Shown here: positions 4,816-64,000 of the stretch, piece after piece
How the letters are laid out: each line of letters begins with the position of its first letter
Position numbering within the stretch: the stretch's first letter is position 1
Assembly: GCA_963971425.1 (NCBI GenBank)
Contig: OZ020517.1
Span: forward strand, 21,896,462 to 21,960,461
Length of the DNA stretch: 64,000 nt
Direction: 5' to 3'
Source: Bryoerythrophyllum caledonicum
Lineage: Eukaryota > Streptophyta > Bryopsida > Pottiales > Pottiaceae
Program-made: the position numbers and the translations under genes
The notes under the pieces: model-generated
What the model saw: the letters and a program-made list of their open reading frames with translations, nothing else
The model's database searches: none
Told to the model about the DNA's origin: nothing

Positions 4816-4947
4816 CTTTTCTATATTAGAGAAGTTATCTGAGATTGTGTCTAGATTATTATATAGATCTTGTTTTTTGAGGTATTTGCTCAGGAATCTA
4901 ACCGGGCCTTTATCTGGGGTGTCTTCTTTGGAGGGCTAGTCTTCTTT

Positions 4948-6330: not shown

Positions 6331-6537
6331 ATAGATGGGCTTGATTTTTCTCTATTTTAATTGTGTTCGAGATTGTGATAATATCTTTCTCAGGGTTACA
6401 TTCCGTTGTATAGATGTTTAGGAGTGGGATGATTATAGGTGGAATGACGGATCTTGAGTCTTGTATTTGTTCTTGGAGGTGATGGGCTTGAATGATTTCC
6501 GAGTAGAATTTATTTTGGATTTGTTGATAATATTGTT

Positions 6538-7239: not shown

Positions 7240-7479
7240 TTTTTTAATTCTAGGTATATTGTCGGCGCCACCGAATTGTGCAAGAACATAATGAGTTAAC
7301 CCATTTTATATTTTTCCGAGCCTACCTTTGTCATTTAGGGCGTTTTGTAATTGTTCCCCTATACACTGTAGAAAGGCGTTTTTGAGGGAGAAAGCTTCAA
7401 GTCCAAATAGGTTGTGTGGGAGTTGAGTTATTGCGTTTGACATGCATTTGGGCATACCACAAATGGTTTTCTGTATGGC

Positions 7480-9555: not shown

Positions 9556-10975
9556 GCCCGGGCTCTTGGCGCAGAGAAAAAGATGGCTATGGCATATATA
9601 ATTCTACCAAAGAAATTAAACTAGCCAAAAGACTCCATGGCCTACAAAATATCCTTAGAGCAGAACTCATGGCCATTCACAAAACACTACAAATCACAAC
9701 ACAATACAAAAATGAACCTGCATATATATTCACCGATTGTATAAATGCACTTTGCCTACTAAACACTCAAATAACACACCCTACCCTTCACAATAGCCAC
9801 CCCGACCAAACCATATTAACATCAATGGTCCAAATGTTACAAAATCGTACACAAATCACAACCCTCCACAAAGTGAGAGCCCATGCCAACATTGACGGCA
9901 ACGAACAAGCAGACAAATTAGCAAAAGAAGGCCGAGAAAAAACACACAAAAATGCCAAAGACCCACACGAACATGCCCATGCTACTTCATACTACTTTCA
10001 AAAAGAAGACTGGCCTTCCAAAGAAGATATCCCCGACAAAGGCCCAATTAGATTTTTGGGCAAATATCTCAAAAAACAAGACCTTTACAACAACCTTGAC
10101 ACAATCTCAGAAAACATTCCTAACATAGAAAAATGGACTAACAATAACGACATAGACAATGAACTCTCTACAGACTTTTGGAAAAACCCCATCATCTCAG
10201 ACTCGCAAATAACATGCCTCATCAAATTCCGTACTGGTCAGTATATGGAAAACGCTCACAAACAACTCTTCTTTGGAATAGAAAGATTTCCATCCATAAC
10301 ATGCCCCATATGCCCCTCAACGGACCCCAACACATGGCTTCATGTTCTACTCAAATGCCAAAACCACCACATACACTCGCTAATTGTTAAAAGACATAAT
10401 AAAGCGGTATGGGAAGTCCGAAAACTAATCACCTCTTACAACAAATCGAGATGTTTTATACTAATGAACGCCGACACTTTTAATAACAATCCACAAGAGA
10501 ATACGGTCCCCCTTGGCTACTCCCATGCTCCTGTATGACTCAAAGATGTCATTGCAACGCTAGGCTCAAACCGGACATCCTTTGTGTTAGAGGTTTACCA
10601 TATAATGACCCACCACCCAATAACATCAACTAAGACTACACCATTCAATTCATTGAATTCACATATTGCAATGATAGATTTTCCCTGAAAAAAATCCAAA
10701 ATAAAATAAATAAATACCAACCCCTTATTGACGACATCATCGCCTTTGGATGGAATGTGGACCCCCTTATTGTAATCACATCCGGCGCTCATGCCACCAC
10801 CTTTACCCCATCTATGAAAACCCTAGAAGATACCTTCAAGATACCTATTGAAACAATTAAAACTACCTTTAAAAATATCAACACCATTGCTATCCAATAT
10901 GCCATGTCTATTCTTCTACATAAACGCAAAATTGAAAACAACCAAGCCCTCCCTAATACACAAGACCCCCCTTAA
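9556..10975 (+). pseudogene. LINE-A RNase H body and C-terminal Cys/His segment
   Basis: After the frameshift the frame reads ILRAELMAIHKTLQ, YIFTDCINALCLL and RAHANIDGNEQADKLAKEG, the RNase H core. CPICPSTDPNTWLHVLLKC follows, then a frame break near 10,510-10,540. The final coding residues (to 10,975) match the LINE-B C-terminus. Relative to LINE-B, Asp in HADIDG is Asn here (HANIDG), a position near the last catalytic residues. Non-functional copy. Confidence 0.8.
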
Positions 10976-11229
10976 AAACTTCGCCACCTTGACTCTTCCT
11001 TATTGGCTGATTGTGTGGTCTTTGCTACTTGCTTGGTTAGTTTTTAGGTCGTGGTTGGTTATTTGTTTGGTTGGTTTCTGGCTACGCGTTACATAGTGTC
11101 TACCCTCGAAAGGGGGGAGTAGTTCCAGCTCACTAATTCCCTGTCCGGTGGGCATGGTCTTGGTAGTGGAACAAACAGACACTTTATTCACGCCGGTTTC
11201 CTTCGGAAACCGGCGTTCTTCTTCTTCTT
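10976..11229 (+). other. LINE-A 3' UTR, perfect stem-loop and (TTC)n tail
   Basis: The sequence after the ORF matches the LINE-B 3' UTR. It ends in a perfect 10-bp stem, GCCGGTTTCC (11,192-11,201), loop TTC, GGAAACCGGC (11,205-11,214), then G(TTC)n to about 11,229, where LINE-C coding sequence resumes. Hairpin plus short microsatellite tail is a typical LINE 3' end; poly(A) is absent. Confidence 0.78.
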
Positions 11230-11710: not shown

Positions 11711-14089
11711 TGTGAGCCGCAAAAACGGCTCACGGTGACGAATGGGCCACACATCGTGTCCAATAACTTTAACAAGTAGTGGAATGGGGTTAACCCATGG
11801 GTTAGCTCATGGTTTTTTTATTAAAATGGCTAAGTAGCCTTTCCATTCACTAATTCCTCAAATAGGAGCCATTTATTGGCAACCACGGATTTTATGAAGT
11901 TAACCAAAAAATGAATAGAAAGGGAAAAATAAAGAAAAAAATAGAAAAGGAAAAAAAGAAGGAAAACAATAGAAAAAAAAGGTAGAAATAGAAGTGGTGG
12001 AGACGAATTTACCTCCTACCGCATCGGGGACCGCAATTGGCCACGGTGAGGAAATCACGGGGAAAAAATTAGGAAAAAAATAAATGAATGACGGTGGGCA
12101 GAAGGAAAAAATGTGGAGGCTTAAAAAGCCCTTAAAAAAGGAGTTAAAAGGGTCCAAAAGCCTTGGCAAACTCCTCACCAATCACTAAGTAAAAGTAGAA
12201 ATTCCTCCAAGCAAAGGAAATTCGAGCTAAGTAGAGTAGTAGTTTTTTGTAACTTGAAGTTAGCCTTAATGGCTCACTTATTGGAGGTCATGCACGCACC
12301 ATGTGGCATGGAGTTAAAGTTAGATTTAGATATTCCTTGGTTAGTGGAACACCCACTTTTGTTAATGCAAGGGTGGCACGGAATTAGTAGTCATAGGGTT
12401 AATAGGCTTTGTAAGAAGGAAGTCATTAATGGAAGAAGGGCCAAAGGCGGTGGGGAACACCCATGGGAACAAAGGAAAGCAAGGCTGGGGGGGTTACCCC
12501 CTGGAGAGGGGGATTATTCAATATGTAGAAGGAATGTGCGAAGGTAGAGAACTGAGAGAGGGAGAGCCGGAAGCCCCGGCCACTGGAAGAGTGAATTAGG
12601 TTAGACACGAAGAGGAAGAACAACACGAGGAAGACACGATCACAGTGAAGAGGAAGAACAACACGAGGAAGACACGATCACGGTGAAGAGGAAGAACAGC
12701 ACGAGGAAGACGATCACGGTGAAGAGGAAGAACAACACGAGGAAGACACGATCACGGTGAAGAGGAAGAACAACACGAGGAAGACACGATCACGGTGAAG
12801 AGGAAGAACAACACGAGGAAGACACGATCACGGTGAAGAGGAAGAACAGCACGAGGAAGACACGATCACGGTGAAGAGGAAGAACAGCACGAGGAAGACG
12901 ATCACGGTGAAGAGGAAGAACAGCACGAGGAAGACACGATCACGGTGAAGAGGAAGAACAACACGAGGAAGACACGATCATGGTGAAGAGAAAGAACAGC
13001 ACGAGGAAGACACGATCACGGTGAAGAAGAAGAACAACACGAGGAAGACGATCACGGCGAAGAGGAAGAACAATACGAGGAAGAGGAAGAACAGCACGAG
13101 GAAGACGATCATGGCGAAGAGGAAGATCAGCACGAGGAAGAGGAAGAACAGCACGGCGAAGACACGATCACGGTGAAGAGGAAGAACAGCACAAGGAAGA
13201 CGATCACGGCGAAGAGGAAGAACAACACGAGGAAGACACGATCACGGCGAGCAGAGGGTGAATTGGAAGAATCAGGGAGCCTCTCTTCTCCCTCAATCAG
13301 CTCACCAATCCTTCATGCATGTAATCGAATGAACCCTAATTTTGTTAACTCCTACTGAGGTGCGGAAGCGCTGCCCAATTTTCACTAGAGTTAGGTTTTT
13401 TTTTTCTTAAGGGGACAACCGGTTTCTTTGCACAAATACAAGAAGATAACGCAGCTGAAGGTTAATGTAGGATAAGCCGGTTTAAAAAGAGAATCCTTGT
13501 GTGAATGTGCATGTTGTGCACGCGATGTATGATGTTTGGCCTTGAATAAACGATTAAGTTGAATGATGTACTGTTGGTCTCTGGCTTGGAGTCCTAGGGT
13601 CATTCAGATGGGTAATTGAAGACCGCCATTGCGTTAAGCACAAAAAAACAATAAGGAGTCAAAACAAACAAACATAATAAACGGAGTTGTAATCAATTAG
13701 AAAACGGAACGATAAACTCTGGGTAAGAAGGAGAAGCCTGTCTGCTGTCGGCTGCTTCCAGGGTCACACCTAAGCCTGGAATCGGTCATTAAGGGTCTAA
13801 TCAAGTTTGTAACGCCGAGTTGCACCCATAGAAGCTTTAAAATGTTGAATTTCGGGGCCCTAGAGCAAAACTTATGCTTGTTCAAAGGTGAGTCCAATTA
13901 AGAGTTGGATTGAGTCACCACACCATTAATCACCCACAAGGAGCTTAAGGTAAGCACAAAATGTATCACCATGCTTGTACGGGGCATGTATGAATGGGTT
14001 GAAGGTTGTTTGCACAAGGGACTAGACCCCGCATTAGGATCTTGTGTTCAAGATAAGCCACCCATTAGGGGCGGTTTATTTGGCTCACA
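11711..14089. mobile_element. Solo-LTR-like insertion with 5-bp target duplication
   Basis: A 2379-bp insertion begins TGTGAGCC and ends GGCTCACA, and is flanked by TGGGG on both sides (11,706-11,710 and 14,090-14,094). Comparison with LINE-A around 1113 shows LINE-C is continuous once the insertion and one TGGGG are removed. TG...CA ends, short inverted termini and a 5-bp duplication fit an LTR. As no second copy is seen inside, a solo LTR is the simplest reading. No integrase or RT is found. A TIR transposon with an unusual 5-bp duplication is the alternative. Confidence 0.65.
12600..13250. repeat. 38-bp tandem repeat array
   Basis: About 17 copies of a purine-rich unit (GAAGAGGAAGAACAACACGA, then GGAAGACACGATCACGGT). 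Some units are 3 bp shorter through loss of ACA, and end units are degenerate. As 38 is not a multiple of 3, the array does not keep one reading frame. It lies inside the solo-LTR-like insertion. Confidence 0.92.
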
Positions 14090-37628: not shown

Positions 37629-38031
37629 TAAGTGTTTGTACTTTTAAAGATAGTCTTTAACAGTGTTAATCTGTATGTGTATACATCAATATTGTGTCGA
37701 TAAAAACAAACTGATCAAAGGAGTATAAAATCAATGGTACAATTACAATGGTTACCTTGAAGGGTTAGGCCCTAAGCAAACTCATCAGTATACTAAAGAT
37801 GGGGTCATTGTAAACATAGTTGATAAAAATATTCATAAGGAGTACAAACTTATGGCATTTATAAACAAATTACTGTCATTAACACTAATGACCATCTTTA
37901 GTGTAGTGCTCTCCATTCTTGAGGTCGTCCTCGGATTTGGACTCCTTTGAATTCGGACCAAACCCTGCAATAAAAATAAAAAAGAACAGATAAGTGCTAC
38001 TTACAAAAAACACAAAACATTATCCATTTAA

Positions 38032-38139
38032 GGATGATGGTTGTCTGTGGTCGCTGACAGAATCTACAAAGGTCGTAGATTTTTGACAGAATCTACAACA
38101 TTTATAGATTCTGTCAACAGCCAAAAACAACCATTGTCC
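38032..38139. mobile_element. Mini fold-back MITE with TTAA ends, 108 bp
   Basis: GGATGATGGTTGTCTGTGG at the left pairs with CCAAAAACAACCATTGTCC at the right, and a nested pair (TGACAGAATCTACA / TAGATTCTGTCA) extends the fold. TTAA lies on both sides (38,028-38,031 and 38,140-38,143), as for piggyBac-type insertion, though TTAA is a common word. Confidence 0.6.
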
Positions 38140-39262
38140 TTAAAGGGTTAAACTAGCTACTAGAACGAAACATAAGGCATGCAACTTTTCCTTAAGGAGG
38201 ATTTCTAAATGAGCTTAGCAATTCTATCAAGATACTCTTTACAACAGCTCTGATGGTTCTACTTGATATAGAGATTGGCTGCTATAAATGTTTTGGTCTA
38301 CAAATGTGCAAATGCACTTGGCAAGCCGACTATTAGAATGAAATTGAAGGAGGCTAATGGGAAGAAATATTTTAAATGTGCGTGAGTGAAAGGATGAGGA
38401 GTTGTATTGGAATTAATTATTGTTGCAATCATTCCAATTGACAAGCCGACAGGCCGTCCTGGCATTGGTTCTAGTCTTCTAGAATGTTGTATGATGTTGA
38501 AAGTGATGTTGTTACCTGTGACAAATGAGCAAGTGCAAATTATTACAAAGATGAAGGAAACAGCGGTAGCGACTAAGGTCTGTTTGCACTTTGTCACGGG
38601 ATATGGCGTCGAGGGCCTCTCCGTATTGTAGTTTTAGCGTAGATTAGTTTGCTACTATTCTATGTGTGTTTAGGGACAAACGGCAGCACACAACACTCAT
38701 CCATGGATGATTTTCATCCTCTTAGGGTTGTACGCGTGTACGTATAGCACACGTCCTTGACTTGACGTCTTTGTCAAGTCAAGCTTTGTGAGTGAGTTTA
38801 GAGAGAGTTAGTGATTGTCCTTGCTTGTAAGTGATGTTTATCATTAGTAACGACTTTGCATTCTCTATTACTCCTTGCACTCGTTGATTCTTCCTTTGTG
38901 AAGTGCGTGACGCTTGACCACTAGTTAGATTCACTACATTCTCACTTGACAAAGACCCTCCTACGTTTCTTGCAATAGTTCTCAAATTTGACATAGAGTG
39001 ATTTAAAAAAAATTATGGAAAATTTAGATTTTGTTGTAGAGCACGCCGAGACGGAGCCAACCCCACCAACGGCGCCCAAATAGATCGATTTTTGGAGAAG
39101 TTGTGGAGATTCGAAGTTGTGGAGCAAGAAGTTCTGGAGTTTCTGGAGTTTCAGCAGTTTCATCCAATTTGTGATTTCTCATCCAATGGCAACGTTTCAT
39201 CCGTTGTGCACAACTTCATCCATTGCGGTTTCATCCGGGGCAGTTTTCATTCGGGTATACAT
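38140..39262. other. Spacer and possible leader; no gene recognised
   Basis: A plus-strand open stretch at 38,407-38,631 (PIDKPTGRPGIGSSLLECCM) and one on the minus strand over the same bases have no recognisable motif. I found no long direct repeat matching the 3' end of the gypsy element near 47.1 kb, so a 5' LTR cannot be placed here. Confidence 0.4.
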
Positions 39263-39265
39263 TTG

Positions 39266-39549
39266 CACTACACTAAACATCGCATTTAGTGTCGTCTACA
39301 CTAAATACAAACCCTTACACTAAATGTAAGAATTACAATTAGTGTAATGACACAACATTACACTAAATGTGAAACATTACACTATATGTGAATGGCAGTA
39401 AAAATGGGTGTTTTTTTTTTACTTGTGCACAATTAATGCATGAAAAAGCTTGCCGCAACTAACACTAGTTGTGAACTTGTTCGCAAATAGTGTAGTAGGA
39501 TAATTACACTATTTGTGTGACTACACTTAATGCGATGTTTAGTGTAGTG
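39266..39549. mobile_element. CACTA-type MITE, 284 bp
   Basis: Begins CACTACACTAAACATCGCAT and ends TGCGATGTTTAGTGTAGTG, inverted repeats of about 36 bp. TTG is duplicated on both sides (39,263-39,265 and 39,550-39,552). The CACTA start and 3-bp duplication are the signature of CACTA (EnSpm) elements. ACACTAAATG words recur inside in both orientations. Confidence 0.87.
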
Positions 39550-40249
39550 TTGTAATTCATTCGGTGACCCTTTTTCCGTGCCGAATTCAAAGGCGTCACT
39601 TGGGGAGTGTCAAAACTTAGAGAGTTGCTAGAATTGAAATTCGCAAATGCTAACTTTTGCAAAAATAATTATTCTTCAATTCTCAGTGCATTTCTGGACT
39701 GCCAGGGGTAGTACAAGCTTGACAGAGAAGAATTTTTTTTAAAATTATAACTTTCGAAAAACCACAATTTTATATAGATTGGTTTAAAAAAAACAAGGTT
39801 TAGTATCAAACTTTGGAGGTAGTTTGCGAGAACACTTGCAAGTGATTTCTTTTTGTATTGCAGGTTTGCAACATGGGCCATCCATTGCAGGCGTGTGCCA
39901 GTGGCTCTAAGCCCCTGTCCATTCTATTTTTATGTTGTTGGGGGAAAAGATCCGGTTTTGATTTCTGGATCCTTGTGCGGTACCTCCCCCGTGTTGTGGG
40001 CTTGTTGCTGGTGTTTTCCGGTGGCCCCATTTCTTGTTGTACGAGATCGTGTTAAGTTACCGTAGGGGTGAAGTCGGGTCCATGGCCGGCAAGAACTTTT
40101 TATGTGGAGGGATGTGGTTGGACTTGTGCTAGTTGGAGGTGATGACCGGTGAACCACAAAGTTTGGTGGTTTTGCAGGTGCAGGTTGCTCTTTCGCACCC
40201 TTACCTTTTAGATAGTACCCGTAGATAGGTCCCGAGGAGGTTGTTTTTT

Positions 40250-42256
40250 ATGGTGAGTACACGGAGTCAGTATAACTGCTGTCCCTCACCAGACCACTCG
40301 AAGAGTGCTTCCATCACAGACTTTGGGCTAGGGTCGAATACCGGCATGGTTTTTGAGTCTGTTTCGGCGTTTGATACCAATCGTAGGCTTCTAGTCTGGG
40401 GCGTAGGCACGTTTGACGACATGGAGGACGATCTCCGTCATGTCGTGCAAGACAAATTCTTGGGACGAGCTGGGGGCATTTCTCTGCCCGATTGGCGGCC
40501 TCAATTCTAGACGTGGATGAAGGAGAAGCGCCAACAAACGCCGTTGTTTAACGACTGGTATGCGTTCGAGCTCTTGCTCCAACATTTGGAGTTGGAAGCC
40601 CTTTAGTCATACGGAAGGTAGACCATGCAGCACGACGCTCAATTGCGTCCCATTGAGGAGTAATGGCGCGAGCGTGTGGAGTTGGTAACTGCGCTCAAGG
40701 AGAGTGCGGTTGCTCATCTCTTGACTTCCATCGAGGAGCCCAAGGTCGAAGAGGATTTCCTCGGTGAGGACTCTAGGGGCAAGGGCATTGCGATTGTAGC
40801 CGAACGCTCTAGCATGGAGGCCATGTCACGTTTGGCTATGGCTACTCGTGCGGCATTAATGGCGGTTGGCAATCTGCCAACCTTCGATCCTTTGGCAAAA
40901 TTCATGGCGCATTTGGAAGTGGAGTACGAGGGATTCAAACTTGATCAGATGTAGCGCATACAAGATTTCCGCCTAAAGAAGGACGATATCCCACGCACCA
41001 TGTATACCCGATTGGCAGGATTGTCAGCGGAGGCCGGTGATGTCTTCACGAAGCGCCAACTTGTAAAGATCTTCATCTCCAAGCTGGACAAGCGGATGGT
41101 GGAGTTCATTAGTCCACATCTTCTTTTACAGTATCACGGCAACGCCACTTTGGCGCAAGCATTTGCTGCGGTGGAAGCGCTTGATAAAGCGTTGGACATG
41201 AGCAAAGCCACGGATTTGGTCACGTCACTGTTGGAGGCTCGCAAGCCAAAGAAGCTTGCTACTACTTCTGGTAGCTAGGCGGAGGCACAACCTGAGAAGG
41301 TTGTGCATTGTTGGACTTGTGGAGAGGAGGGTCACACCAAAGGGGACCCCAATTGCTCCAAGAAGAAGGGGGCAGGCACCGTGAAGGCCGAGTCCAAGAC
41401 CGAGGTGGCCAGGACTACAGAGAAGGATGAGGGCAAGGAGAAGAAGGCTCTGACATGTTCTCATTGTGGCAAGACTCGCCACAGTGATGAGAATTGTTTT
41501 GCTCATCACATGGAGAAGCGCCGAGGATCTTCGGTTGCTGAATCAGAGGTTGTGAAGAAACTCCAGACCGAAATGGCGGAGATGAGGAAGCAGATGAGCG
41601 TGATGGCTCCTTTGAGGCAAGTGGCGGACACACAACCTCTGGTGAGGGGTCAGAGCTCATCTTCAACCCTAGATCGCTATTTGTATGGCACTTCAGGGGA
41701 GGTGGTGGCAGCAGTTGCCACTCGTGCTCAGGCTAGCGCACAGGCGGTAGCACCTTCTCCCTTTGTGCCAGGGGTAAGTGGCCGTCCACGCCACACGGGA
41801 TTTCCGGACCACATTGGTCAGTCTCGATTATCTCTTTCGTTCAGCATCGCGGATGCGGCAACTTTTACTGCCGCCTCGACTCCGATCCCAATCCCACCAG
41901 TTTCTTCTTGTCGTGGAGATGCCGCACACCTTGGCGTATAAGGTGTTGCAGTTGCCGTTGTTTGTCAGTGTGGACTTTTGACAACGAATTTTCAACCATC
42001 CGGTGTATTCCATTTGGCGGGTAGTATGTTGGAGGGCAAGGTGCCCATGCCATCGTTGGAGGTGTCGCACATAGTGACGGCTCCACCCATCGAGAAGGAT
42101 TTGGTGGCAATGCGGGCCAAGTTGGCGGCGGAGGCCATTTCTGCATTTGACGCCAATGCCACTTCCACAATTATAGAGCAACCCTCCGGGAATGAGTCCT
42201 TGATCTCTGGAATGGGTTATTTGCTTGACATTGCGGCCCAGTCAACACGAGAGCGA
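40250..42256 (+). pseudogene. Gag with two zinc knuckles
   Basis: The ATG at 40,250 (MVSTRSQYN) opens the frame. The capsid-like middle (about 40,676-41,275) includes YTRLAGLSAEAGDVFTKRQL and VEFISPHLLLQYHG. Two CCHC knuckles follow: CWTCGEEGHTKGDPNC (41,309; CX2CX4HX6C, spacing slightly long) and CSHCGKTRHSDENC (41,456; canonical CX2CX4HX4C). A Gln/Ser/Ala-rich tail leads to the protease. Stops: TAG at 40,508, 40,604, 40,619, 40,952 and 41,276; TAA at 40,661 and 41,939; TGA at 42,257. Gag packages the RNA genome in virus-like particles. Confidence 0.82.
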
Positions 42257-42640
42257 TGAAGTGTGCGTCCATAGGTGGTACGCTTGGTAAACGATGACAT
42301 AATCATGGTGGTTGGTTACACAGACGGCAACCCCACCCGAGCTACCTCCCTACGTGTTATGTTGGACTCCGGAGCTCAGCTAGTGATTATTGGCAAGCAG
42401 CTAGCCTAGGATTTAGGTCTAGGTGTTTCAGACCTCGAGCCTTGCCCATTTACGATTGTTACATCCGTAGAGAGCACAGAGAAAGCCATGGGCTACACCC
42501 GACATCCGTTGTAGTTGATGTTCGGTGTGGAATTTGGTCCTTTGTTCTCTCACGTATCTCTCCAGTGCGCTATGACTAGCGCCACCAACTACGACATTTT
42601 GATGGGTCAGGACTCAACAGGCCCTTTATCCCCTCGGATT
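42257..42640 (+). pseudogene. Retropepsin-like aspartic protease
   Basis: Same frame as Gag. VMLDSGAQLVIIGKQLA carries the D-S-G-A active-site motif at about 42,365; YDILMGQD near 42,600 is the downstream conserved block. TAG stops at 42,272, 42,407 and 42,512 interrupt it, and the frame shifts by one near 42,615-42,645. It would release the mature proteins from the polyprotein. Confidence 0.75.
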
Positions 42641-43030
42641 TGGTGTGGATAATCGGACGAAGGAGGCTTGGATTAGGCCTGGGTGGTCTGCCGATGATGG
42701 CAGAAACGAGCTCATTCCGGTTGTCTTCGCAGCTAGCGTGGTGACTTCTACGGCAGATGCTATATTTGAATATAGTGCCTTGGCATCCGATTTGCCATGT
42801 GGTTTTTTGCTTTTGGAGGCGATATATTTTTTTATGTCGGGGGTAGCGGAATCACGTGAATATAGATCAATGGAGATCCTTGCACGTCATTGCAAGGATC
42901 CCCTTTCTCCATGGGGAACTCAGTTCGAGCTCACACGCCGCAGTCGGGAGATTGTAGAGGCTATTGATGCTCCCCACCTTTCAATAGACTCTTCCACTCC
43001 GTTGTTGGCTCGCACTGTCTAGTGGCAACC
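42641..43030 (+). pseudogene. Linker between protease and methyltransferase
   Basis: In frame 0 after the shift: VDNRTKEAWIRPGW, then YSALASDLPCGFLLLEAIYF and REIVEAIDAPHLSIDSS. About 125 codons without recognised domain. Similar linkers between protease and RT are common in gypsy elements; here it precedes the methyltransferase. Confidence 0.45.
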
Positions 43031-43039
43031 ACCGGATAG

Positions 43040-43990
43040 GGTATTACCCTTGTGGAGTTATTTGCCGGTATCGGCACGGGGCTCGCGTCTGTGTTGGAGG
43101 CCAGGCTCAAGGTACGATGGTATATCCAGGTGGATGGTGGCTTTGCAGCCAACCGTGCCGCTCACCATCACATTCAGCGTCTTCTGGCGTTGTATCCGGA
43201 GCAGTTACCACCTTCTTCGATTCAAGGGTATTTTGGCAAGTTGCCACGTGATGTGACGTTGATAAGTGAGGATGATCTCCGCCGGTTAGGTCACGTGGAC
43301 TTGGTGATTGCCGGATGCCCTTGCCAAGGCCATTCACGGGCGGGCAGTGGACGTGGCTTGGATGATCCACGGTCGGGTCTCTTTGAGGATTTGCTCAGGC
43401 TCATCCAGTGGTGGATTCCCACCAATCGACGCTAGCGGGGTACATTTTTTAGAATGTACCCCCATTGGGCGATACGCGGCAAAGGTGCGTGAAGATGGGA
43501 CATACATTCATCACCTTCTTGGTCCCCCACGTTTGTTGATGCCGCAACGTTGGACTCTTACGCTCATCAGCCACGTTGGATTTGGACCAACATGGCATCA
43601 TCGGCAATGATCACATCCGCACTTGCTCAAGTGCAACGGCCCGTGCGCCGTGAGGTTGATGACATCTTGGACGACCACCGTGCTTCCACGGGGGTTACCA
43701 AGGATGATAAGCCACCATTGGCCGTGGTCAACCGCGTTGATTTCACTCGGGGGTCGTTTCCTGCGTTGATGTGCTAACCAGGGTCTTTTGCCTTTAGGAC
43801 ACGCGATCCGAGCATGGTTTGGGATTCTACTTTCCAAACTTACAAGGAGCCTTATTCCAATGAGAGGGAGCGGGCGATGGGTTTTTTGGCGGGCACCACG
43901 GCCGCACCGGATCTCTCTGAGGGCCAACGTCGTTTGAGTGATCATCCATGCATGTTGGGGGCAGCGATGCCACATCTCATAGAGATCAAG
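43040..43990 (+). pseudogene. C5-cytosine DNA methyltransferase domain inside Pol
   Basis: Motif I reads TLVELFAGIGTGLASVL (about 43,046), where FxGxG binds S-adenosylmethionine. Motif IV reads VIAGCPCQGHSRAGSGRG (about 43,307) with the catalytic Cys intact. Motif VI (ENVPPLGD-like) appears at about 43,447, with TAG for Glu and frame breaks on both sides. VDAATLDSYAHQPRWIWTN (about 43,533) and NERERAMGF (about 43,857) match the late conserved region; a motif X-like block follows (LGAAMPHLI). About 300 codons, the size of a compact catalytic domain. It lies between protease and RT and is back in the Gag-Pol frame on both sides. It would methylate cytosine in DNA; motif VI loss makes this copy dead. 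Confidence 0.88.
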
Positions 43991-44260
43991 GAAGCGGAGT
44001 TGTTTTTTCGTCTGAAGAGGCATGCAGCTGAGGAGCTTCATACTTAGCGTGTCTTTACAGCTTTGGCCGAGGACTTTGGTCGAGAGGATGCCCGGGATAT
44101 CTTTTCCCAGTTTTATCATCACGACACGGGATTTTCTGTGGATCCTGTGAGTGAGGAGTCTGGGGGCATTAATGCCCTCTCTGCTACCAAGTAACAATCA
44201 TCGGGCGTGCCGGTACGTGGTGAGTCTTCTACGGTGGAGAAAGAGACTACGGAGTTTGAT
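43991..44260 (+). pseudogene. Linker between methyltransferase and RT
   Basis: Same frame as Gag: RVFTALAEDFGREDARDIFS, then YHHDTGFSVDPVSEES. Stops are TAG (about 44,045) and TAA (about 44,192). Unrecognised; acidic, likely a spacer between domains. Confidence 0.45.
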
Positions 44261-44945
44261 GATTGGCCTTTGGATTTGGGGCTACATCTTATCGGTGTCG
44301 AGACACGGAGGATACGAGCATTTATACGTTCGTATTGTAGTTGTTTTGCCTTTAGTCTCCATGATTTGGAGGGATTTAGAGGCAAGCCCATTCACATTCA
44401 GTTGGAGGACGACCACCGGATCTTCCAACGACCGTACAAGCTTAGTCTATCACAGAAAGTTGAGGTTCAGACTCGTTGTCAGGAGTTGTTGGCCCCCAGC
44501 TTGATTGAGCTCTCTAACGGCAAGTACCCTTGTACCACAGATGATGGATCGAGTGTTGACCGGTTTACCGTTTGGCCGATGCTACATTGATAATGTTATC
44601 ATTTTTAGTAGCAGCCCACAAGAGCATGTGAGGCGTCTTCAAGCGGTGTTTGAAAGGTTACGGCAGTAGGGATTGCGTTTGCACCATGGCAAGTGCAAGT
44701 TCTTCCACGACCGGTTGCCATATTTGGGACATATGATTGTTCCAGGGGGTCTTGGCTTGCAGCAGGCCAAGGTGGCTGCGTTGCACAAGATTCCTGCCCC
44801 AATCGAGGTGTCACGGCTTCGAGTTTTTCTTGGCTCGGCAAATTACTATCGCTGGTTTGTCAAGAATTTTAGCTTGATTGCCAAGCCGCTAACTATTCTC
44901 ACGGGGAAGGATCAGCCTTGGACTTGGGAACGGGAGCAGCAGTAG
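44261..44945 (+). pseudogene. Reverse transcriptase with internal deletion and YIDN active site
   Basis: The start of RT (GKPIHIQLEDDHRIFQRPYK, SLIELSNGKYPC) is present, but the fingers/palm part with motif A is deleted at about 44,540. The frame then jumps to MMDRVLTGLPFGRCYIDNVI. The canonical YxDD is YIDN here (GAT to AAT at the second Asp). KCKFFHDRLPYLGHMIVPGG and LRVFLGSANYYRWFVKNFS represent the thumb/connection. TAG at about 44,667 and 44,943 sit at probable Gln positions. It cannot polymerise DNA. Confidence 0.85.
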
Positions 44946-45230
44946 GGGTTTGCTACTTTGAAGCTGAAGCTCGGTTCAAGGCCTGTACTGCGGCGTCCAG
45001 ATGCTACACGACATTTTCACTTGCACACAGACTGGAGTGTTGTGGGATTGGGGGTTGTATTGACTCAGAAGGATGATGAGGGACGAGAGTACATTGTGGC
45101 GATCGCTTCTAGAAGCAACAACAATGTGGAGTCCAAGTATTCGTCCTATGGGGGGAGGCCTAGGCAGTGGTTTGGGCCATAGAGACTTTTTGTCACAGTC
45201 TCCTCTATGACAGAAAGTTGGTCCCGGGGT
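44946..45230 (+). pseudogene. RNase H domain, truncated
   Basis: Reads RPVLRRPDATRHFHLHTDWS, then GLGVVLTQKDDEGREYIVAI and ASRSNNNVESKYSSY, the gypsy RNase H with its first Asp. After a frame break it continues WAIETFCHSLLYDRKLV, but the usual TDHxPL block and its downstream residues are missing, so about 60-70 residues are deleted before the integrase linker. Confidence 0.8.
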
Positions 45231-46575
45231 GGCATATAGCAGCTTACCTCACGTTGATGCCTGGCTCCGCATTGACGTTGATTGATTTGGCAGCAGATGA
45301 CGAACCAGATAGAGCCCAAGTTGTTAGCGATGCGTGGGAAGACGGTCGAGTCTTGCATAAGCTACAACATGGGACACTTCCCCCAACTCTTCCTCCGATG
45401 GAGGGTGATAGAGTTGAGCACCGAATAGCAAGGTTCCGTTGGGAGAAAGGCCTTCTATTTTGGGTGTGGTCAAATGGGACTCGGCGCATAGTTCCAAGGC
45501 CAGAACAGAGGGCTTCGTTGATACGGCAAGTACACAAAAACCTAGGACATTTTGGTGTGCGACAAACTCATTCGATGTTGCGCAACCAGTGTTGGTGGAC
45601 CAGCATGTATCAGCAAGTTGCCATGTATGTTTCTCGGTGTGAAGTATGTGATCGGGTTAGATCCGGTTTCAACACCTTATCATCCGAGCTGCAGCCTTTG
45701 CCCATTATGAGGCTAGGATACCGATGGTCTTTGGACTTTGTTGGTCCACTTGTCGTGACTCCACGCGGACCCAAGTATGTCTTGGTGATGGTGGAGCATT
45801 TGAGCAAGTGGATTGAACTCATGGCTCTTCCGCTAAACTCTTCAGAGTTGCCGGCCATGGCATTCCTCGACCACGTGTTAGCTCATTTTGGAGCTCCAGC
45901 TAAGGTTTTGACTGACCAGGGACGTGAGTTCCTTGGGGCTTTTGAAGCTTTGTGTATCAAGGCTTTGATTGACCTTTGTACTACATCTCGGGATCACCCA
46001 GAAGCGGATGGTTTGGCGGAGCGTGTGGTTCAGACCATGAAGCGGGGCCTACGGAAGTATGGATTACTTCAGGGTGGCCACCGTGATTGGGCTCTGATGA
46101 TACCATGGATTGCCATGGAGTACCGGTTCAGTCGACAAGCTTCACTAGCTGCTTTTAGTCCGTATCAATTGTTGTACAGGCGGGAGCGAATTTTACCGAG
46201 TTCCGTTTGGGAAAACTTGGCTCCGGTTGTGGATTTGGACGATCCAAAGTTGTGGGCCCAATATCTACGGGATCAAGCAAAATTCTTCAAGCGGGCTATG
46301 CCCATGGCCATGGAGAACTTGTCCATCGCTCAACACCATGACACATTACAGTACACTGGTATTTGTAGCGGTGCCTACCGACCTCAGCTACGACGTTTTT
46401 CCACGGGGGATTACGTTTATCTACAACGTGAGGCACCCACGACGTTGGATGTCAAGGCTGGGCGCACCATTCTTCGCGTGAAGGATGTGTTGCCTAGTGG
46501 CATCTTGTTGTTGGAAGGCAAGGATGGCCGGGAGTGTCGGGAACACTCTAAGAATTGTGCCCTTTGTCATTAATC
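45231..46575 (+). pseudogene. Integrase (HHCC and DDE core)
   Basis: Part of an uninterrupted 468-codon frame (45,167-46,573). The zinc-binding region includes HKNLGHFGVRQTHSML and YVSRCEVC. The catalytic core shows RWSLDFVGPL (first Asp), KVLTDQGREFLGAFEAL (second Asp) and EADGLAERVVQTMKRGL (Glu), all intact. After the core comes RRFSTGDYVYLQREAP, the usual C-terminal DNA-binding type block. A TAA at 46,571 precedes the PHD finger in the same frame. It inserts cDNA into chromosomal DNA; this part is the best preserved of the element. Confidence 0.9.
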
Positions 46576-46627
46576 CATTGATGGCTCCGTTCATCCAGAG
46601 TTGGCGGTTGTGCCCGACGGCCTTCCG

Positions 46628-46765
46628 TGTTTTGTGTGTGGTGAGAAGAAGGGTGCGGCTCCCATGTTGCTTTGTGACCATTGCGAGCATGGTTGGCATA
46701 TGGCTTGCCTGACGCCGCCTCTTTCTACTCTACCGTCCGGGGATTGGACTTGACCTCGTCGTCAG
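46628..46765 (+). pseudogene. PHD finger fused to integrase C-terminus
   Basis: In the same frame as integrase: LPCFVCGEKKGAAPMLLCD, then HCEHGWHMACLTPPLS and LPSGDWT. The spacing C-x2-C-x12-C-x2-C-x4-H-x2-C fits the C4HC3 PHD signature and includes the conserved Trp before the last Cys pair. The seventh Cys codon is TGA (46,751) and the eighth reads Arg (CGT), so zinc binding is lost here. PHD fingers bind histone H3 tails (often K4 methylated or unmodified). Position after integrase suggests chromatin targeting of insertion, like chromodomains in chromoviruses; this is inference. Confidence 0.8.
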
Positions 46766-46799
46766 AGGGTCTTCGAGCCACGTTTCACCCGGTAAAACG

Positions 46800-47395
46800 A
46801 CTTGAATTCCTTGTGGACTTCTCACTATGAGGTGCGTTGCCATCCAGTTGAAGTTCCTGGTTTCGATTCAAGGATAAGCAACGTGGAGATTGACCAAGGG
46901 ATTGGCAACAAAGTTGTCTAAGGCGATTTAAGATGGGGCTCATATTGCACCCGGCCTACTCTCTCTTTGTTACTTCTCCATATGCTTATTGATTCGGCGA
47001 TGGGCGACATCTTCGACTGGATGCGTATAGTTGTTGCAACGACATCACCGTGGCGTTTAGTCGTGTTAGTGCTGTATGGTCCTAGCTGGATAGAGGGTCT
47101 TTTTATCCGCCAAGGGGGCACTTGAGGGTGTATTACGTATACTTGTTTTAGTGTATGTTTTTTGTTTATTTGATGTTGGTTAGGACTTTCGATCTGTTGT
47201 GGTTATCGATCTTTCTTTACATGACAACTTGGTGTTAGAGTGGTGTAATCAAATTGTATTTAAGAGGTGCAACTTTAGGATGGTCTCATTTGCTAACGCC
47301 ACTGTTAACACCAAGTGCATACATACCATAAGCATGTTGGGAACAAAACTCTCCGGCGCCATATTGCAATAGAAACTGAGGAGTGAAGTATAGCA
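46800..47395. other. Possible 3' end of gypsy element and spacer
   Basis: The plus frame persists weakly to about 46,915 (VPGFDSRISNVEIDQGIG) and then closes. AAGGGGGCACTTGAG at 47,110-47,125 could be a polypurine tract followed by TG, and TTGGTGTTAGAGTGG at 47,229 resembles a primer-binding-site-like word. No matching copy was found upstream of Gag, so the LTR is unproven. Confidence 0.35.
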
Positions 47396-47399
47396 CGGC

Positions 47400-48060
47400 G
47401 TTGATGCCACTAAACTGCACATTTAGGCAAGGTAACAAAATAGCTTCATCTTATCCACGTAAAACTTAGTGATCTTCATAATTTTTACTTTTTCTACTAA
47501 TAGATGTGGTGTAGACCTTCTTGTTGACCATTTGGATTCTCATTCAAAAAATATAAACTTTCCAAAAAAATAAAATAACATGAATTGGCAATTTTTAAAC
47601 TCCACTCTTTGCACAATTGTTTTGAATATGCTACATCACTTTTCTACCTCTAAACATTGGTGTACAATGGAATAGTATCATGCTTGACATAGTGGTAATA
47701 AATTTAGACCATGTGAAGTATAAATTTTGACACCATGTGAAGTCAAAGTCTATTGATCGACTCAACGCAAGGAAGAAAATGAACCGTTCTCTCTACTTCA
47801 AACACTATTATTAATCCCTCAATTGTGAGGTAAAAGTGAATGAAATCTTGTGAATATCTTACTTGATAAGTCTTAATTGAGATCCTACAATAAAAACTGC
47901 ATATGATAAGTTTTGTTTCCTTCCTTACTCACTATACTAGAATCACTAGTTTTGAAGTGTTTTTAGTGTGGCACTATCAAAGAAATTTAGAGGATAGCCT
48001 ATGTCTTTTATAAATTTTATTCAATAGGACTTTCAAATCATATAGTACCACTACAATTAA
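47400..48060. repeat. Interspersed AT-rich repeat, copy 1
   Basis: Aligns with 51,200-51,760 in direct orientation. Shared words include GATGTGGTGTAGACCTTCTT, GAATTGGCAATTTTT, TTCTACCTCTAAACATTGGT and GTACAA. Non-coding; a more diverged relative may lie at 52,900-53,250 (GATCTTTCAATTTGTGCAAT). Confidence 0.8.
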
Positions 48061-54373: not shown

Positions 54374-56878
54374 CCCCTAAACGTCTGGTGGGAACCGTAG
54401 TGCCAGCGACGTATGCAGTCGATACGGTGTTCACAAAGCGACCTACGTGAACTAGACAAGCAATCAGACCGTGCGGATTGAGAGAGGATCCTCGAGAGAT
54501 GGAAGCCTAAAGTTTTGGGCTCGATCCATCGTTTCTGAACCGCACAGTGATCGACTAGTGACTTCACGGCAGATCGTAGACCTCGACACCGAAGTACGCA
54601 GGGTGACCCGGTGAGGACGCAGGGTTCGATGACGTGTTTGCGTAGCTGGTTGTACCTTGCCACAACTGAGACGCAGGATGTGACACAGTGGAGCATGAGG
54701 GAACGGCCGGAGATGGCGGGACTCTGGGAATCTCCGAGAGCGGTAGCTTCTGCGCAATACTCTCTGCCCCACCTGGCAGTGCTGAATGCAGTGGATTCTC
54801 GCGGGAGGAGAGACTTGGCGGCAAAATCCCCACCGAGTCAGTCTACATGCGCAAGGAGGACTCAGCCAAGGATACTTTTGATACATTGCAAAATTGTATG
54901 TTATGTGTATTACAATCAATCGCAGTTCACATCTTTTCCACCTTGCACTCAAAAGGTATCACTGATCTATCTGAATTCAAAATATAATCCAGTGTTGCTG
55001 AAACTGAACCTGGAGGCTACACACTCAACCACCACAATCCTCTCAGTTGTTGCTGACCTCATGCGCAGCTCATAAACCCCTCAAAAAACATGAAAAAACA
55101 ACGATCTCTTTTGAAGATGAACTCGAAGCTTGAAGGCAGATGGATCCCTCTGTCCGGTAGAAGAACTCCAAAGGTGAACCACGCTACACCGAACTAACCG
55201 CCCTCCAAGTGCCTATCAATGACCACCGTACTTGTACCCCGCCCACCAAGGATTGAATGATTCCGAACCAGTTAAGCTCGACGGCGCCCTGCCAAGTACC
55301 CAGGCTGGGTGTGTACGGCCACGTAACACGCCCCGTCGCACATAAACTGCCCCGCACAACCACCACAAAACCCGCGAGTAACCTTTCTGCAGGCCACACA
55401 GGCACGGCAAGCTGAACAGTGGCCTTCAATCCGGTGGAATCCAGGGGGAGCCAGGCGACGGTGTCGTTCTCTCACGTGACCTCCGGGAAGGTACGGGCCA
55501 ATCAGGTGCATTGCAAGGGTGTAATGCCAGAACACCCTTGAGAAGATGGGCAACCCGGCGTTCTCACAGTCGGCACGGTAGAGCAGATATGAATTCAACA
55601 CCACAGAATCAAGTGTCCACAATAGCAGTCGATGCCACCACTTGTGCGTAGGCAGCTGAATAGTGTACTCCCCGCGTTGCTGGTCTACAACGTCGATCCC
55701 GTGCATGAAATCTTGATACTCCAACAAGATGGGGCTGGTGGGGAAATCCACACGGTCACGTCTTCCCGGAACTCACCGAGCGGCCATACACTTGGGGTCA
55801 CAAGGATTAGTTGCAGTGGACAGTAAGAAAACGGGCTTGGAATCGATCCAACACACAGCAGCAATTTTGCGTGACCTGTGCATTTTCACAACAACTGTGC
55901 CCCGGGGAGGCAACTGAGTCTTCGGAAAACCTGCTAGTGATGTAGGAAACCCACGGGATCCTTTCTTCACGGTGCCCGTTGCAAAGAACCCCCTCTGCAG
56001 CAAGGACATATGGAGCTTCACACCTGTGAAAAAATTGTCGGTGACGATCGTGTGTGCTCGGTGTTCGTATCCCTTCACAACTTGAAGAACCGCATCCTCT
56101 CCTACAAGGTCGCCCTCAACCACTCTATAGAGAGCAATCCCACAACTTGCCTTGCCAGAATGTGTGAGGCTCCACGATCCCTTGCCCACGAATATAACAA
56201 TTCTGCCTCGGGTTCTAATCCGGTTGGCGCAAGTGGAGGTACTCGCCCTGAAGACATCATGGTTGCACTACGAGGCACAACGTCGTAAACAACCCACTCG
56301 CAGATAACAAGCTCCAACTGCCTTCTCCCACTCGCCAGAATTATGAGCCAGGACAATGTGCACACAATTGAAGCCGCCAAATTTTACAAGACCACTCCGA
56401 CCACTACGTACATCGCCCCGCACAACCACCACAAATCATGAAATCCCTCTGTCCGGCATTCACCTCCACTCTCGCCACTCTCCTCCAACTGAACGCGATC
56501 ACTCTCAACGTTCATCACCCTAAACCCTAGGCTGCTAACGTTCGGCTTTGGCGCCAAGGGACAAATCGCCAACTCCCGCCTTTCGCAGATTCCGCCCTCC
56601 CGCGCCGGCCGTGTACACCCTGGCAACCCTTTGACCCGATGAACTTCCGGGCCCCTTTTCATGTACAGTGCTCTGCGATCCGTAGCTGCTTGGATATACA
56701 AAAGGCTGCAGCAGACAGCTCACTTGTCCAAATCGGGTGCTCTGTATATCATTAGAAAGCTTACCTTTCAAATACCATTTCCCTTTTGAACCTTGCAGCC
56801 TCCAGATCAGTGCAAGTCCCCCAAATACGCAGAAAACAGGTTGTATTTGCCACAGTGGCTGTTTCAGACGTTTAGGGG
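54374..56878 (-). mobile_element. piggyBac transposon relic with intact ends
   Basis: Perfect 14-bp inverted repeats CCCCTAAACGTCTG (54,374-54,387) and CAGACGTTTAGGGG (56,865-56,878), flanked by TTAA on both sides (54,370-54,373 and 56,879-56,882). TTAA targets are diagnostic of piggyBac. A degraded transposase lies inside on the minus strand. A block GCCCCGCACAACCACCACAA occurs at about 55,352 and 56,412, so part of the interior is duplicated. Confidence 0.92.
55272..56290 (-). pseudogene. piggyBac transposase fragment with Cys-rich C-terminus
   Basis: First frame (56,189-55,773): ASCGIALYRVVEGDLVGEDA, HTIVTDNFFTGVKLHMSLL (a catalytic Asp) and GFFATGTVKKGSRGFPTSL. After a frameshift near 55,760, the second frame (to 55,272) reads DFMHGIDVVDQQRGEYTIQL (last catalytic Asp), HKWWHRLLLWTLDSVVLNSY and the Cys-rich end CSACRACVACRK then GFCGGCAGQFMC. 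The N-terminal third with the first catalytic Asp was not found, so the protein is incomplete. Family function: precise cut-and-paste transposition at TTAA. Confidence 0.85.
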
Positions 56879-62713: not shown

Positions 62714-64000
62714 TCACTCTCGCTCTCCCGCTCGCTGCTCTCGCGCCTGGAGCTCTGAGACTGATGGTGATCCCCATTGTGGCACACGAAATGTAGGGTG
62801 GAAATTTTGCACAGGGGTTGGCTGTAGAATTGGTTGTGATGGGTGGGTTGGCATCGTCGATATCATTGGGCCACCAAATTGGTTGTGCAGGAGGCGTGCG
62901 TCCATGTAGAATTGTTGATGCATCTAGGGCGATGGTGGTGTAAAGGTCGCAAACTGATTGGGGATTCCACCTGGAGCGAAGGTGAAGTCCCTGCGCCACG
63001 GCTCCGACGCATGGCCGCTCTCCTCCCCAGCGCTCCCGCTTGTGTGCGCTTCCTCCGAGCTCCCGACTTGCTGGCCCTGTGCTGTCGCCGTTGCCCTCCC
63101 GCCGCGACGACGCGGGCCGACTCGCTCTGCAGCCAGCCTGGCTTTCTCTGCAGCTTTCATGGCGCGCGTCGCTGCGACCTGAGCAACGCGCTCAGTTCGC
63201 ATGCGCAGCGCCAGTTCCTTCTTGGCGTTTCTCTGCTCGCGCGCTGCAGCTGTTTCCAGCGCCCTCGCCTCCTTCTCGAGCGCCTTCCTACGCTTCGCGG
63301 CCTCTTTCTCCTCACGTACCCTCTCTTTCTCTTGTGCTGCTAAATCTTTTGCCTCTTTTTGTCTTTCAACTGCCGCTGCATACTCATCCGAGGTCAATAT
63401 CTTGGACTGTGTGAAATCCAGGATGGGATCGCGCCTTCGGGGATTTGCACGGGCAGCAATGGTGGGCAACGTCAGGAATCGAGTGATCGACTCGGGCTCC
63501 CCCTCATCGAGCTCCAGCCTCGCCAATTCGTTGGCGACTTCTTTGTCAGTGTGATCCGGCGCCACAAAAAAATGTGCCGCAGTTGAGTCGGGGACTTCGT
63601 CGAACTCTGCCTCCATCGACTGGGAGCTCGCAGCCTCTAACGGTACGTCGAAGTCTCCCGTCCTTTGCGGCCCTGACTGTGGTTGCTCCGTAGGACCTCC
63701 GCCCTCTGCCGTTTTCTCTCCGACTTGTGCAGTACCTGTCTCGTAGAATATTTCTGACGGTGTGAGATGTCTGTTCATGGCTGCAGGGTTGATGGGACAT
63801 ATACCTGTGCCGCGGAAGCCGCTCAGAATGTTGCTCGAGGTGAGAGCTTTTCGCAACCCCAGAGAAACCCACTGCGCTAGAGTAGTCTTGTTTGCTGGTT
63901 GAGACATGTTTCGAGATGTCCAATAATCTCGGTAGGCTCTGAAATGTAGCTTGAATGGCTTGAAGATACTAACGTCAAGTGGCTGCATGGCGTGCGATGT
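62714..64000 (-). pseudogene. Pogo/Jerky-like DDE transposase, C-terminal part (partial)
   Basis: Open at the right edge (SHAMQPLDVSIFKPFKLHF). The DDE_1 end is clear: QPLDVSIFKPF, YRDYWTSRNMSQ, KTTLAQWVSLGLRKALTSSN and GFRGTGICPINPAAMNR. After an acidic Glu/Pro region come DPILDFTQSKILTSDEYAAA and a long Ala/Glu/Lys/Arg helix (about 63,190-63,380) suited to coiled-coil formation, then Gly/Arg/Thr-rich RRRGGRATATAQ. A TAG at 62,924 interrupts the frame, which stays open to 62,714 with plausible protein (MHQQFYMDARLLHNQFGGP), so the stop may be a recent mutation. Catalytic Asp residues lie beyond the window. Confidence 0.85.

What the first reader, a model, noticed from the sequence alone, without database searches (positions are those of the whole stretch)
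40250..46800. Gypsy retrotransposon that combines a DNA methyltransferase and a PHD finger
The frame carries, in order, Gag zinc knuckles, LDSGAQ protease, a C5-methyltransferase (ELFAGIGTGL, AGCPCQGHSRAG, SYAHQPRWIWTN, ERERAMGF), RT, RNase H, integrase and a C4HC3 PHD finger. The methyltransferase sits between protease and RT; the PHD finger follows integrase; all lie in essentially the same frame. Methyltransferases in retrotransposons have been reported from dinoflagellates and charophytes (de Mendoza and colleagues, 2018, from memory). The additional histone-reading module in the same polyprotein is, as far as I know, not a described combination. One element would then carry both a methylation writer and a chromatin reader. 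Biological role is inferred.
Basis: partly seen in the sequence, partly recalled or inferred. Interest (0 to 1): 0.95.

Follow-up and report, generated by a model that had tools for sequence, protein, structure and literature searches.

The report
Gypsy element with methylation writer, histone-type finger
A broken jumping gene in this window belongs to a large family that carries both a DNA-methylating enzyme and a probable histone-reading finger, apparently joined across a leaky stop signal, which could help explain how such elements interact with their host's gene-silencing system.

Summary
The window holds one decayed copy (38592-47226, flanked by the 4-bp duplication ACTT) of a Ty3/Gypsy-type element: Gag, protease, DNMT3-type C5 methyltransferase, RT, RNase H, DDE integrase, C-terminal PHD finger. 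In the same genome 95 of the 106 scored methyltransferase copies have an integrase-end/PHD match downstream on the same strand within 20 kb, 89 within about 6 kb, 66 at one fixed spacing. Both domains also occur together in predicted proteins of Marchantia and Sphagnum and in one open frame (P0205). The combination is conserved, not chance.

(1) A conserved in-frame stop separates Gag-protease-methyltransferase from RT-integrase-PHD; the CARYYA readthrough hexamer follows it in 109 of 120 copies examined from three diverged subfamilies. (2) The ends are split direct repeats, A-coding-B-A-B, the layout described for KnitGypsy-Dnmt3 of Klebsormidium, yet 8 of 9 testable copies have perfect 4-bp duplications, fitting a DDE integrase.

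Best reading: the methyltransferase is made at Gag level, and the PHD rides on integrase as a chromatin tether, perhaps for H3 tails unmethylated at K4. Anatomy is shown; readthrough and both activities are inferred. A new variant of the known DNMT3-Gypsy retrotransposons.

The parts
38588..38591 (.). left copy of the 4-bp target duplication, ACTT
   Evidence: repeated at 47227-47230
38592..38955 (+). terminal repeat A1, begins TGTCACGGG
   Evidence: matches L001 7057-7426; A of about 362 nt in other copies
40250..41938 (+). Gag region (ATG at 40250), broken; two CCHC-like knuckles near 41309 and 41456
   Evidence: translation; zf-CCHC only 0.049, below cut-off
42275..42649 (+). aspartic protease region with LDSGAQ at about 42362-42379, broken by a stop
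   Evidence: PF13650 0.13; 7.8e-4 in L001
43040..44044 (+). DNMT3-type C5 methyltransferase; ELFAGIG near 43055, PCQ near 43319; broken by stops, a frame change and a partial deletion
44192..44200 (+). conserved stop TAA followed by CAATCA (fits the CARYYA readthrough hexamer)
   Evidence: TAG CAATCA in L001
44195..45182 (+). remains of RT and RNase H; RT core missing near 44540 relative to L001
45164..46570 (+). integrase: zinc-binding H2C2 domain, DDE core, C-terminal part
   Evidence: PF17921 1.1e-15, PF00665 2.9e-11
46628..46750 (+). C4HC3 PHD finger, truncated before its last zinc-ligand pair in this copy
   Evidence: PF00628 6.9e-10
47121..47226 (+). terminal repeat B1, ends ACATGACA; the A2-B2 tail seen in other copies is missing here
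47227..47230 (.). right copy of the 4-bp target duplication, ACTT

Best explanation
This is a dead copy of a recently active Ty3/Gypsy-type retrotransposon family that carries a DNMT3-type methyltransferase and a PHD finger as regular parts. Shown by sequence: the domain order; the fixed linkage; DNMT3 affinity by profile and predicted fold; conserved catalytic residues; an in-frame stop with the readthrough hexamer (UAG CARYYA) after the methyltransferase; split direct repeats A-coding-B-A-B; 4-bp target duplications. The PHD finger, in the place where chromoviruses carry a chromodomain, tethers integrase to nucleosomes, most likely H3 tails with unmethylated K4. The methyltransferase methylates CG in the element's own DNA during or just after integration, so that new copies enter in a silent-looking state.
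For: Linkage: 89 of 106 methyltransferase copies have the integrase-end/PHD segment downstream on the same strand within 20 kb, 66 within 20 nt of 2,754; six more pair with PF00628 hits, 95 of 106. Leaving out six pairs at 12.9-19.3 kb, which could belong to other copies, it is 89 of 106 within about 6 kb. 54 of 118 integrase relatives carry PF00628 (my count of the table). Both domains in single proteins: P0132, P0164, P0205. Writer: best profile matches are DNMT3A/B (2.2e-18), then a plant-type 'DNA methyltransferase' (4onj, 2.2e-9) and DRM2 (4.4e-8), then bacterial enzymes; predicted model pLDDT 86, the 50 PDB folds listed are DNMT3 chains, TM up to 0.83 by target length; the catalytic Cys and the Glu-Asn of motif VI are among the invariant columns of 35 aligned sequences. 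Constraint: dN/dS window against L001 0.19 and 0.37 (two methyltransferase pieces), 0.21 (integrase), 0.11 (PHD, 58 codons). Stop: stop plus CARYYA in 75 of 80, 18 of 20 and 16 of 20 copies of three subfamilies, with hexamers mainly CAATCA, CAACCA and CAACTA: between families essentially only the two pyrimidine positions change, while the encoded residue changes Ser/Pro/Leu; background in the window 4 of 2,949 stop triplets, the element's own among the four. CARYYA as readthrough signal: passages of PMC4132726. Ends: 8 of 9 copies with both ends found have perfect 4-bp duplications; A1 and A2 are 96.7-99.7% alike in nine pairs. PHD: by sequence the best PDB match is PHF12, followed by KDM5A/B, DPF2, UHRF1 and ATXR5; fold neighbours with good local fit include UHRF1, ATXR5, BAZ2A and BHC80, some solved with unmodified H3 tails by their titles.
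Against: No biochemical test. The KnitGypsy-Dnmt3 enzyme did not methylate DNA in yeast; the authors call that inconclusive because human DNMT3B also failed (PMC5890265 passage). CpG is not depleted in the window element (observed/expected 0.80, against 0.71 for the rest of the window), which gives no support to heavy self-methylation. C-to-T differences from L001 (direction not polarised) are higher at CG (126 of 882) and CHG (115 of 694) than at CHH (219 of 2,459), which host methylation alone would explain. Copies within a subfamily are not independent, so 109 of 120 amounts to about three states; 3 of 20 third-subfamily copies have CAACGA, outside the consensus. The window's own copy has TAA, which PMC4132726 found much less efficient than UAG or UGA with this hexamer. 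Some relatives have methyltransferase and RT in one frame without a stop (P0196, P0199, P0203). 11 of 106 methyltransferase copies have no listed PHD within 20 kb, though the PHD lists were capped at 150. PHD neighbours also include an H3K4me1 complex (EHD3) and acetyl-H3 readers, so K4 preference is a guess.
Confidence: 0.62

Rival explanations
1. The methyltransferase is a camouflage or counter-defence enzyme: it methylates cDNA so that the host does not sense or edit it as foreign, and it has no working link with the PHD finger.
For: de Mendoza et al. discuss this for DNMT retrotransposons (passages). Here the methyltransferase lies in the Gag-level product, which suits action on cDNA in particles, apart from the integrase-bound PHD.
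Against: Does not explain why the two modules stay together across diverged subfamilies; but co-inheritance alone cannot separate the readings.
Confidence: 0.3
2. The PHD finger is not a histone reader but a zinc-stabilised protein-contact module (for example for integrase multimerisation or as an adaptor).
For: PHD folds can have such roles (recalled). The two-domain model has pTM 0.47, so the placement of the finger against the integrase C-terminus is uncertain.
Against: Many of its closest sequence and fold relatives are H3-tail readers (roles partly recalled).
Confidence: 0.2
3. ORF2 is made by reinitiation, splicing or an internal start rather than by readthrough.
For: The stop is a real stop in nearly all copies examined; there are no expression data.
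Against: After the stop the frame stays open to the end of the 300-nt stretch in 58 of 59 first-family copies; the first in-frame ATG of ORF2 in L001 lies about 110 codons in (my reading); the hexamer looks constrained at the nucleotide level.
Confidence: 0.1
4. The methyltransferase or the PHD finger arrived as unrelated later insertions, or by assembly error, in this copy.
For: None found.
Against: Fixed spacing in a chromosome-scale assembly, an independent public contig, L001, and conserved proteins in other species.
Confidence: 0.01

Closest known systems
KnitGypsy-Dnmt3 of Klebsormidium nitens (de Mendoza et al. 2018, PMC5890265; abstract and passages seen)
   Same: Gypsy-type domains, DNMT3-type enzyme in the element, end repeats described as those of a DIRS element (A-coding-B-A-B). 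K. nitens also has integrase-PHD proteins related to this one (P0089, P0138).
   Different: There the enzyme is said to lie in the Pol polyprotein frame; here it ends Gag-protease-methyltransferase before a leaky stop. 'PHD' has 0 occurrences in the main text, and a leaky stop or target duplications did not appear in the passages seen (not searched for by name). No K. nitens methyltransferase came up, so direct kinship of the enzymes is untested.
SymbioDIRS-Dnmt3 and SymbioLINE-Dnmt of Symbiodinium (same paper, passages)
   Same: Retrotransposons with a cytosine methyltransferase; the DIRS form is DNMT3-type with A-coding-B-A-B repeats and was active on CG in yeast.
   Different: Tyrosine recombinase or LINE machinery, not a DDE integrase; independent origin according to the authors.
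Chromoviruses (Gypsy with a C-terminal chromodomain; recalled)
   Same: A chromatin-binding module at the integrase C-terminus. This genome has many chromodomain matches (150 scored of 1,242 candidates), not checked for being Gypsy.
   Different: PHD finger instead of chromodomain; extra DNMT3; split repeats.
Ginger1 DNA transposons (PMC2836005, passages seen)
   Same: Gypsy-like integrase/transposase with, in one family (Ginger1-9_HM), a PHD finger together with Ulp1.
   Different: DNA transposons, no methyltransferase mentioned in the passages seen.
Ngaro/PAT-type retrotransposons (split direct repeats; recalled)
   Same: A-coding-B-A-B ends.
   Different: They use a tyrosine recombinase and make no target duplication (recalled); here a DDE integrase and 4-bp duplications.

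Membership tests
Ty3/Gypsy LTR retrotransposons | RT-RNase H-DDE integrase order with H2C2 and rve | tested here: met
   L001; window, RT core missing. No RT tree was built
Ty3/Gypsy LTR retrotransposons | simple LTR-coding-LTR ends | tested here: not met
   A-coding-B-A-B, with 4-bp duplications as for a DDE integrase: Gypsy-like machinery with unusual ends
KnitGypsy-Dnmt3-like elements | DNMT3-type methyltransferase inside the element | tested here: met
KnitGypsy-Dnmt3-like elements | DIRS-like repeat layout with Gypsy domains | tested here: met
   compared with the wording of PMC5890265, not with its sequences
KnitGypsy-Dnmt3-like elements | sequence clade with the K. nitens enzyme | not tested
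   no K. nitens methyltransferase among the hits
DNMT3 methyltransferases | closest to DNMT3 by profile and fold, motifs in normal order (unlike DRM) | tested here: met
   no tree with host DNMT3s
DNMT3 methyltransferases | CG methylation activity | not testable with these tools
   needs expression
PHD fingers (PF00628) | C4HC3 ligands and score above the gathering cut-off | tested here: met
   39.2 bits, cut-off 24; last ligand pair lost in the window copy; 39.9 bits, whole model
PHD fingers (PF00628) | histone H3 tail binding | not testable with these tools
   only resemblance
Chromoviruses | C-terminal chromodomain | tested here: not met
   no Chromo family listed for the integrase end, PHD instead
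DIRS/Ngaro/PAT elements | tyrosine recombinase, no target duplication | tested here: not met
   DDE integrase, duplications in 8 of 9 copies
TMV-type leaky stop (UAG CARYYA) | hexamer after the stop and open frame beyond | tested here: met
TMV-type leaky stop (UAG CARYYA) | measured readthrough | not testable with these tools
   needs a reporter

The most novel reading that the evidence does not exclude
An old Gypsy lineage of green plants carries its own two-part silencing kit: a PHD finger that guides integrase to nucleosomes with unmethylated H3K4 and a DNMT3-type enzyme that methylates the DNA there, dosed against each other by a leaky stop. It would rebuild, in pieces on one mobile element, the read-and-write logic of host DNMT3 (ADD plus catalytic domain, recalled), on DIRS-like ends that a DDE integrase has taken over.
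Probability: 0.3. Interest if true: 0.9.

Novelty: new variant of a known kind. Interest (0 to 1): 0.74.

Why it matters
It makes testable why retrotransposons capture DNA methyltransferases. Here a writer and a probable chromatin reader stay linked in nearly all of 106 scored loci of one genome (2,403 first-look candidates), with young copies. The published view that the Klebsormidium acquisition was private to that lineage may need revision: methyltransferase relatives with element domains sit in Marchantia, Calypogeia, Sphagnum, Closterium and this genome. The pairing of split direct repeats with a DDE integrase also raises a question about how such elements replicate.

Tried and rejected
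Considered and rejected: chimeric assembly or later insertion; bacterial origin of the enzyme (HaeIII and HhaI were the best PDB hits for the single decayed piece, but the family profile and the fold favour DNMT3); the stop at 44192 as mere decay. DNMT1/CMT affinity: no chain so named among the 53 matches at E up to 0.01.

Led nowhere: viral-contig scans with P0001 and A2 gave no relative; with A1 only a short match at 34% identity, L002, in what looks like a bacterial or phage contig. No Rfam match (38000-48000) and no tRNA in the window. No repeat pair of 40 nt or more that could be LTRs was found in the window, later explained by the missing A2-B2. The methyltransferase tree holds 19 sequences (P0204 and P0207 dropped for short matches), has only a 167-residue DNMT3A piece as outgroup and no host DNMT3, so it cannot date or count acquisitions. 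In it P0181-P0183, P0188, P0173, P0178 and L001 group at 0.97, and P0196, P0199, P0201, P0203, P0205 and P0206 at 0.98; the node joining P0205, P0206 and P0203 has only 0.22. Methyltransferase and integrase identities correlate (Spearman 0.62 over 24 of 28 pairs from 8 elements; the pairs are not independent).

Literature: ten searches. Titles and abstract starts in their listings showed no Gypsy element with both domains; one search listed only 25 of 75 papers; subscription papers, figures and supplements were not searched. The Culex and pine papers mention PHD only as genes at or near insertions (passages).


Full report
What is in the window. Pfam on ten stop-free pieces finds DNA_methylase (2.2e-11), Integrase_H2C2 (1.1e-15), rve (2.9e-11) and PHD (6.9e-10). 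Knuckle and protease are visible by motif but below Pfam's cut-offs. No second copy lies in the window (tblastn of eight pieces).

Relatives. A protein search with the methyltransferase frame gave 54 relatives at 37-81% identity, from ENA, JGI, LGN and NCBI sources; one is labelled as from a bacterial MAG. A search with the integrase piece gave 118, of which I count 54 with PF00628; many of the others may simply end before that point, which I did not check. Named ones come from Klebsormidium nitens, Calypogeia fissa, Marchantia polymorpha, Riccia, Sphagnum, Closterium and Pseudoscourfieldia marina, plus one fish record (Menidia) without PHD. Marchantia P0132 and Sphagnum P0164 have protease, methyltransferase, integrase and PHD pieces in one predicted protein. 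P0205 has RT, RNase H, methyltransferase, integrase and PHD in one 1,440-aa frame, with the enzyme between RNase H and integrase. A third search, set to longer proteins, gave 36. P0173-P0178 (1,330-1,339 aa) are Gag-protease-methyltransferase frames that end at the place of the L001 stop (ALSAT plus K, Q or E); P0182, P0184-P0186 and P0188 (1,427-1,451 aa) end like the third subfamily before its stop.

An intact relative. One contig in a cyanobacterial bin (L001, CADCWO010000201.1, almost certainly mis-binned) matches the window element at 75-90% DNA identity in pieces. It has ORF1, Gag-protease-methyltransferase, and ORF2, RT-RNase H-integrase-PHD, in the same frame with one TAG between them. 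Its ends overlap by exactly 127 nt, so it is a circular or collapsed assembly.

The own genome. G000 has 437 Mb in 894 contigs; the window lies on C4. With the L001 methyltransferase, 106 of 2,403 first-look candidates were scored (82-95% identity); 64 have no inner stop and 12 of these lie in open frames of at least 1,300 aa. With the integrase end plus PHD, 150 of 2,206 were scored. 89 of 106 methyltransferase copies have that segment downstream on the same strand within 20 kb, 71 of them at 2,600-2,900 nt and 66 within 20 nt of 2,754; six more pair with PF00628 hits. Six of these 95 pairs are 12.9-19.3 kb apart and may join different copies; 89 of 106 lie within about 6 kb. Eleven copies have no listed partner, with PHD lists capped at 150. 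A second subfamily has a PHD pattern in 6 of 7 loci examined; the third in 5 of 5 loci that were chosen by their PHD hit, and 14 of 25 copies have a listed PHD within 20 kb (two pieces of one further locus were left out).

The leaky stop. I examined the first 80 of the 106 first-family copies, 20 second-subfamily copies chosen mainly for long frames, and 20 third-subfamily copies. First family: TAG or TAA followed by CAATCA in 75 of 80 (73 of 80 by a stricter pattern); one further copy has TTG before CAATCA. Second: TAG followed by CAACCA or CAGCCA in 18 of 20 (in 15 it is the first stop in frame). Third: CAACTA or CAACCA in 16 of 20, CAACGA in 3, none in 1. CARYYA is the hexamer reported as important for readthrough of the Tobacco Mosaic Virus stop (PMC4132726, passages). 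Between families essentially only the two pyrimidine positions vary, while the residue varies (Ser, Pro, Leu). Copies inside a family are not independent.

Ends. In ten first-family copies chosen for normal spacing and plus strand, the element starts TGTCACGGG (A, about 362 nt; two of the nine with A1 differ by one base there) and ends with B1 (107 nt)-GC-A2-B2 ending GACA. One of the ten lacked a recognisable A1 in the stretch fetched. Of the other nine, eight have perfect 4-bp duplications and one does not. The second and third subfamilies show a B repeat with the same GACA-GC-TGTC junction in 5 of 7 and 2 of 5 loci. The window copy has A1 and one B between ACTT duplications and lacks A2-B2, as recombination between the B repeats would leave it (inference).

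Enzyme and finger. The profile of 17 relatives ranks DNMT3A/B first, then 4onj and DRM2, then bacterial enzymes and DNMT2. The predicted fold matches DNMT3 chains best. The catalytic Cys and the motif VI Glu-Asn are invariant columns in 35 sequences. The PHD finger is closest to PHF12, KDM5A/B, DPF2, UHRF1 and ATXR5 by sequence, and its fold search gives UHRF1, ATXR5, BAZ2A and BHC80 among others (the top-ranked PHF1 and multi-domain matches have rmsd above 12). The two-domain model has pLDDT 81 but pTM 0.47. dN/dS between window and L001 is 0.11-0.57 across nine pieces; the window copy is decayed, which raises dN.

Signals of methylation. C-to-T differences from L001 are more frequent at CG and CHG than at CHH; CpG is not depleted. 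This fits a methylated copy but does not say who methylated it.

Compared with what is known. de Mendoza et al. describe a DNMT3 in a Gypsy element of K. nitens with DIRS-like repeats and call it an independent acquisition in that lineage (passages). The present family shares these features by description. Not found in the listings of the ten searches or in the passages seen: the PHD finger as a regular partner, the leaky stop, the 4-bp duplications on split repeats, and the wider host range. Membership by sequence with the K. nitens enzyme could not be tested.

Verdict. A real, conserved and recently active architecture (recent by A1-A2 identity and open frames, an inference); a new variant of a known kind. 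Its anatomy is well supported; its mechanism is a good hypothesis.

Noticed in passing
P0205, P0206: The methyltransferase sits directly before integrase (in P0205 between RNase H and integrase) instead of before RT, so the module has moved or was captured twice.
   Followed up: partly
P0196, P0199, P0203 (Closterium): Methyltransferase and RT lie in one open frame without the leaky stop.
   Followed up: partly
G000:C14:16016358-16017317 (L003): A single-frame C5 methyltransferase of 370 aa matching nearly the whole PF00145 model at 218 bits, unlike the element enzymes.
   Followed up: no
L160: Tail with several A-B units in tandem, like multimerised ends.
   Followed up: no
L105, L099: Two second-subfamily copies in which the leaky stop is replaced by a sense codon or deleted, giving one long frame.
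   Followed up: no
window 2-1714: Frame with a 2A-like motif (SGDIETNPGP; motif recalled), in an AT-rich repeat region.
   Followed up: no
window 3982-10976: A stretch of 7 kb that matches its own reverse complement at 81%, i.e. a large palindrome of repeat frames.
   Followed up: no
window 12609-13250: Tandem array with a period of about 38 bp.
   Followed up: no
window 55275-56267 (-) and 62927-64000 (-): Frames that look like piggyBac and pogo/Tigger-type transposases (recognised by eye, not tested).
   Followed up: no
own genome: Many chromodomain matches (150 scored of 1,242 candidates), several in frames of 1,193 or 1,378 aa, a possible comparison set for insertion-site preference; not checked for being Gypsy.
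   Followed up: no
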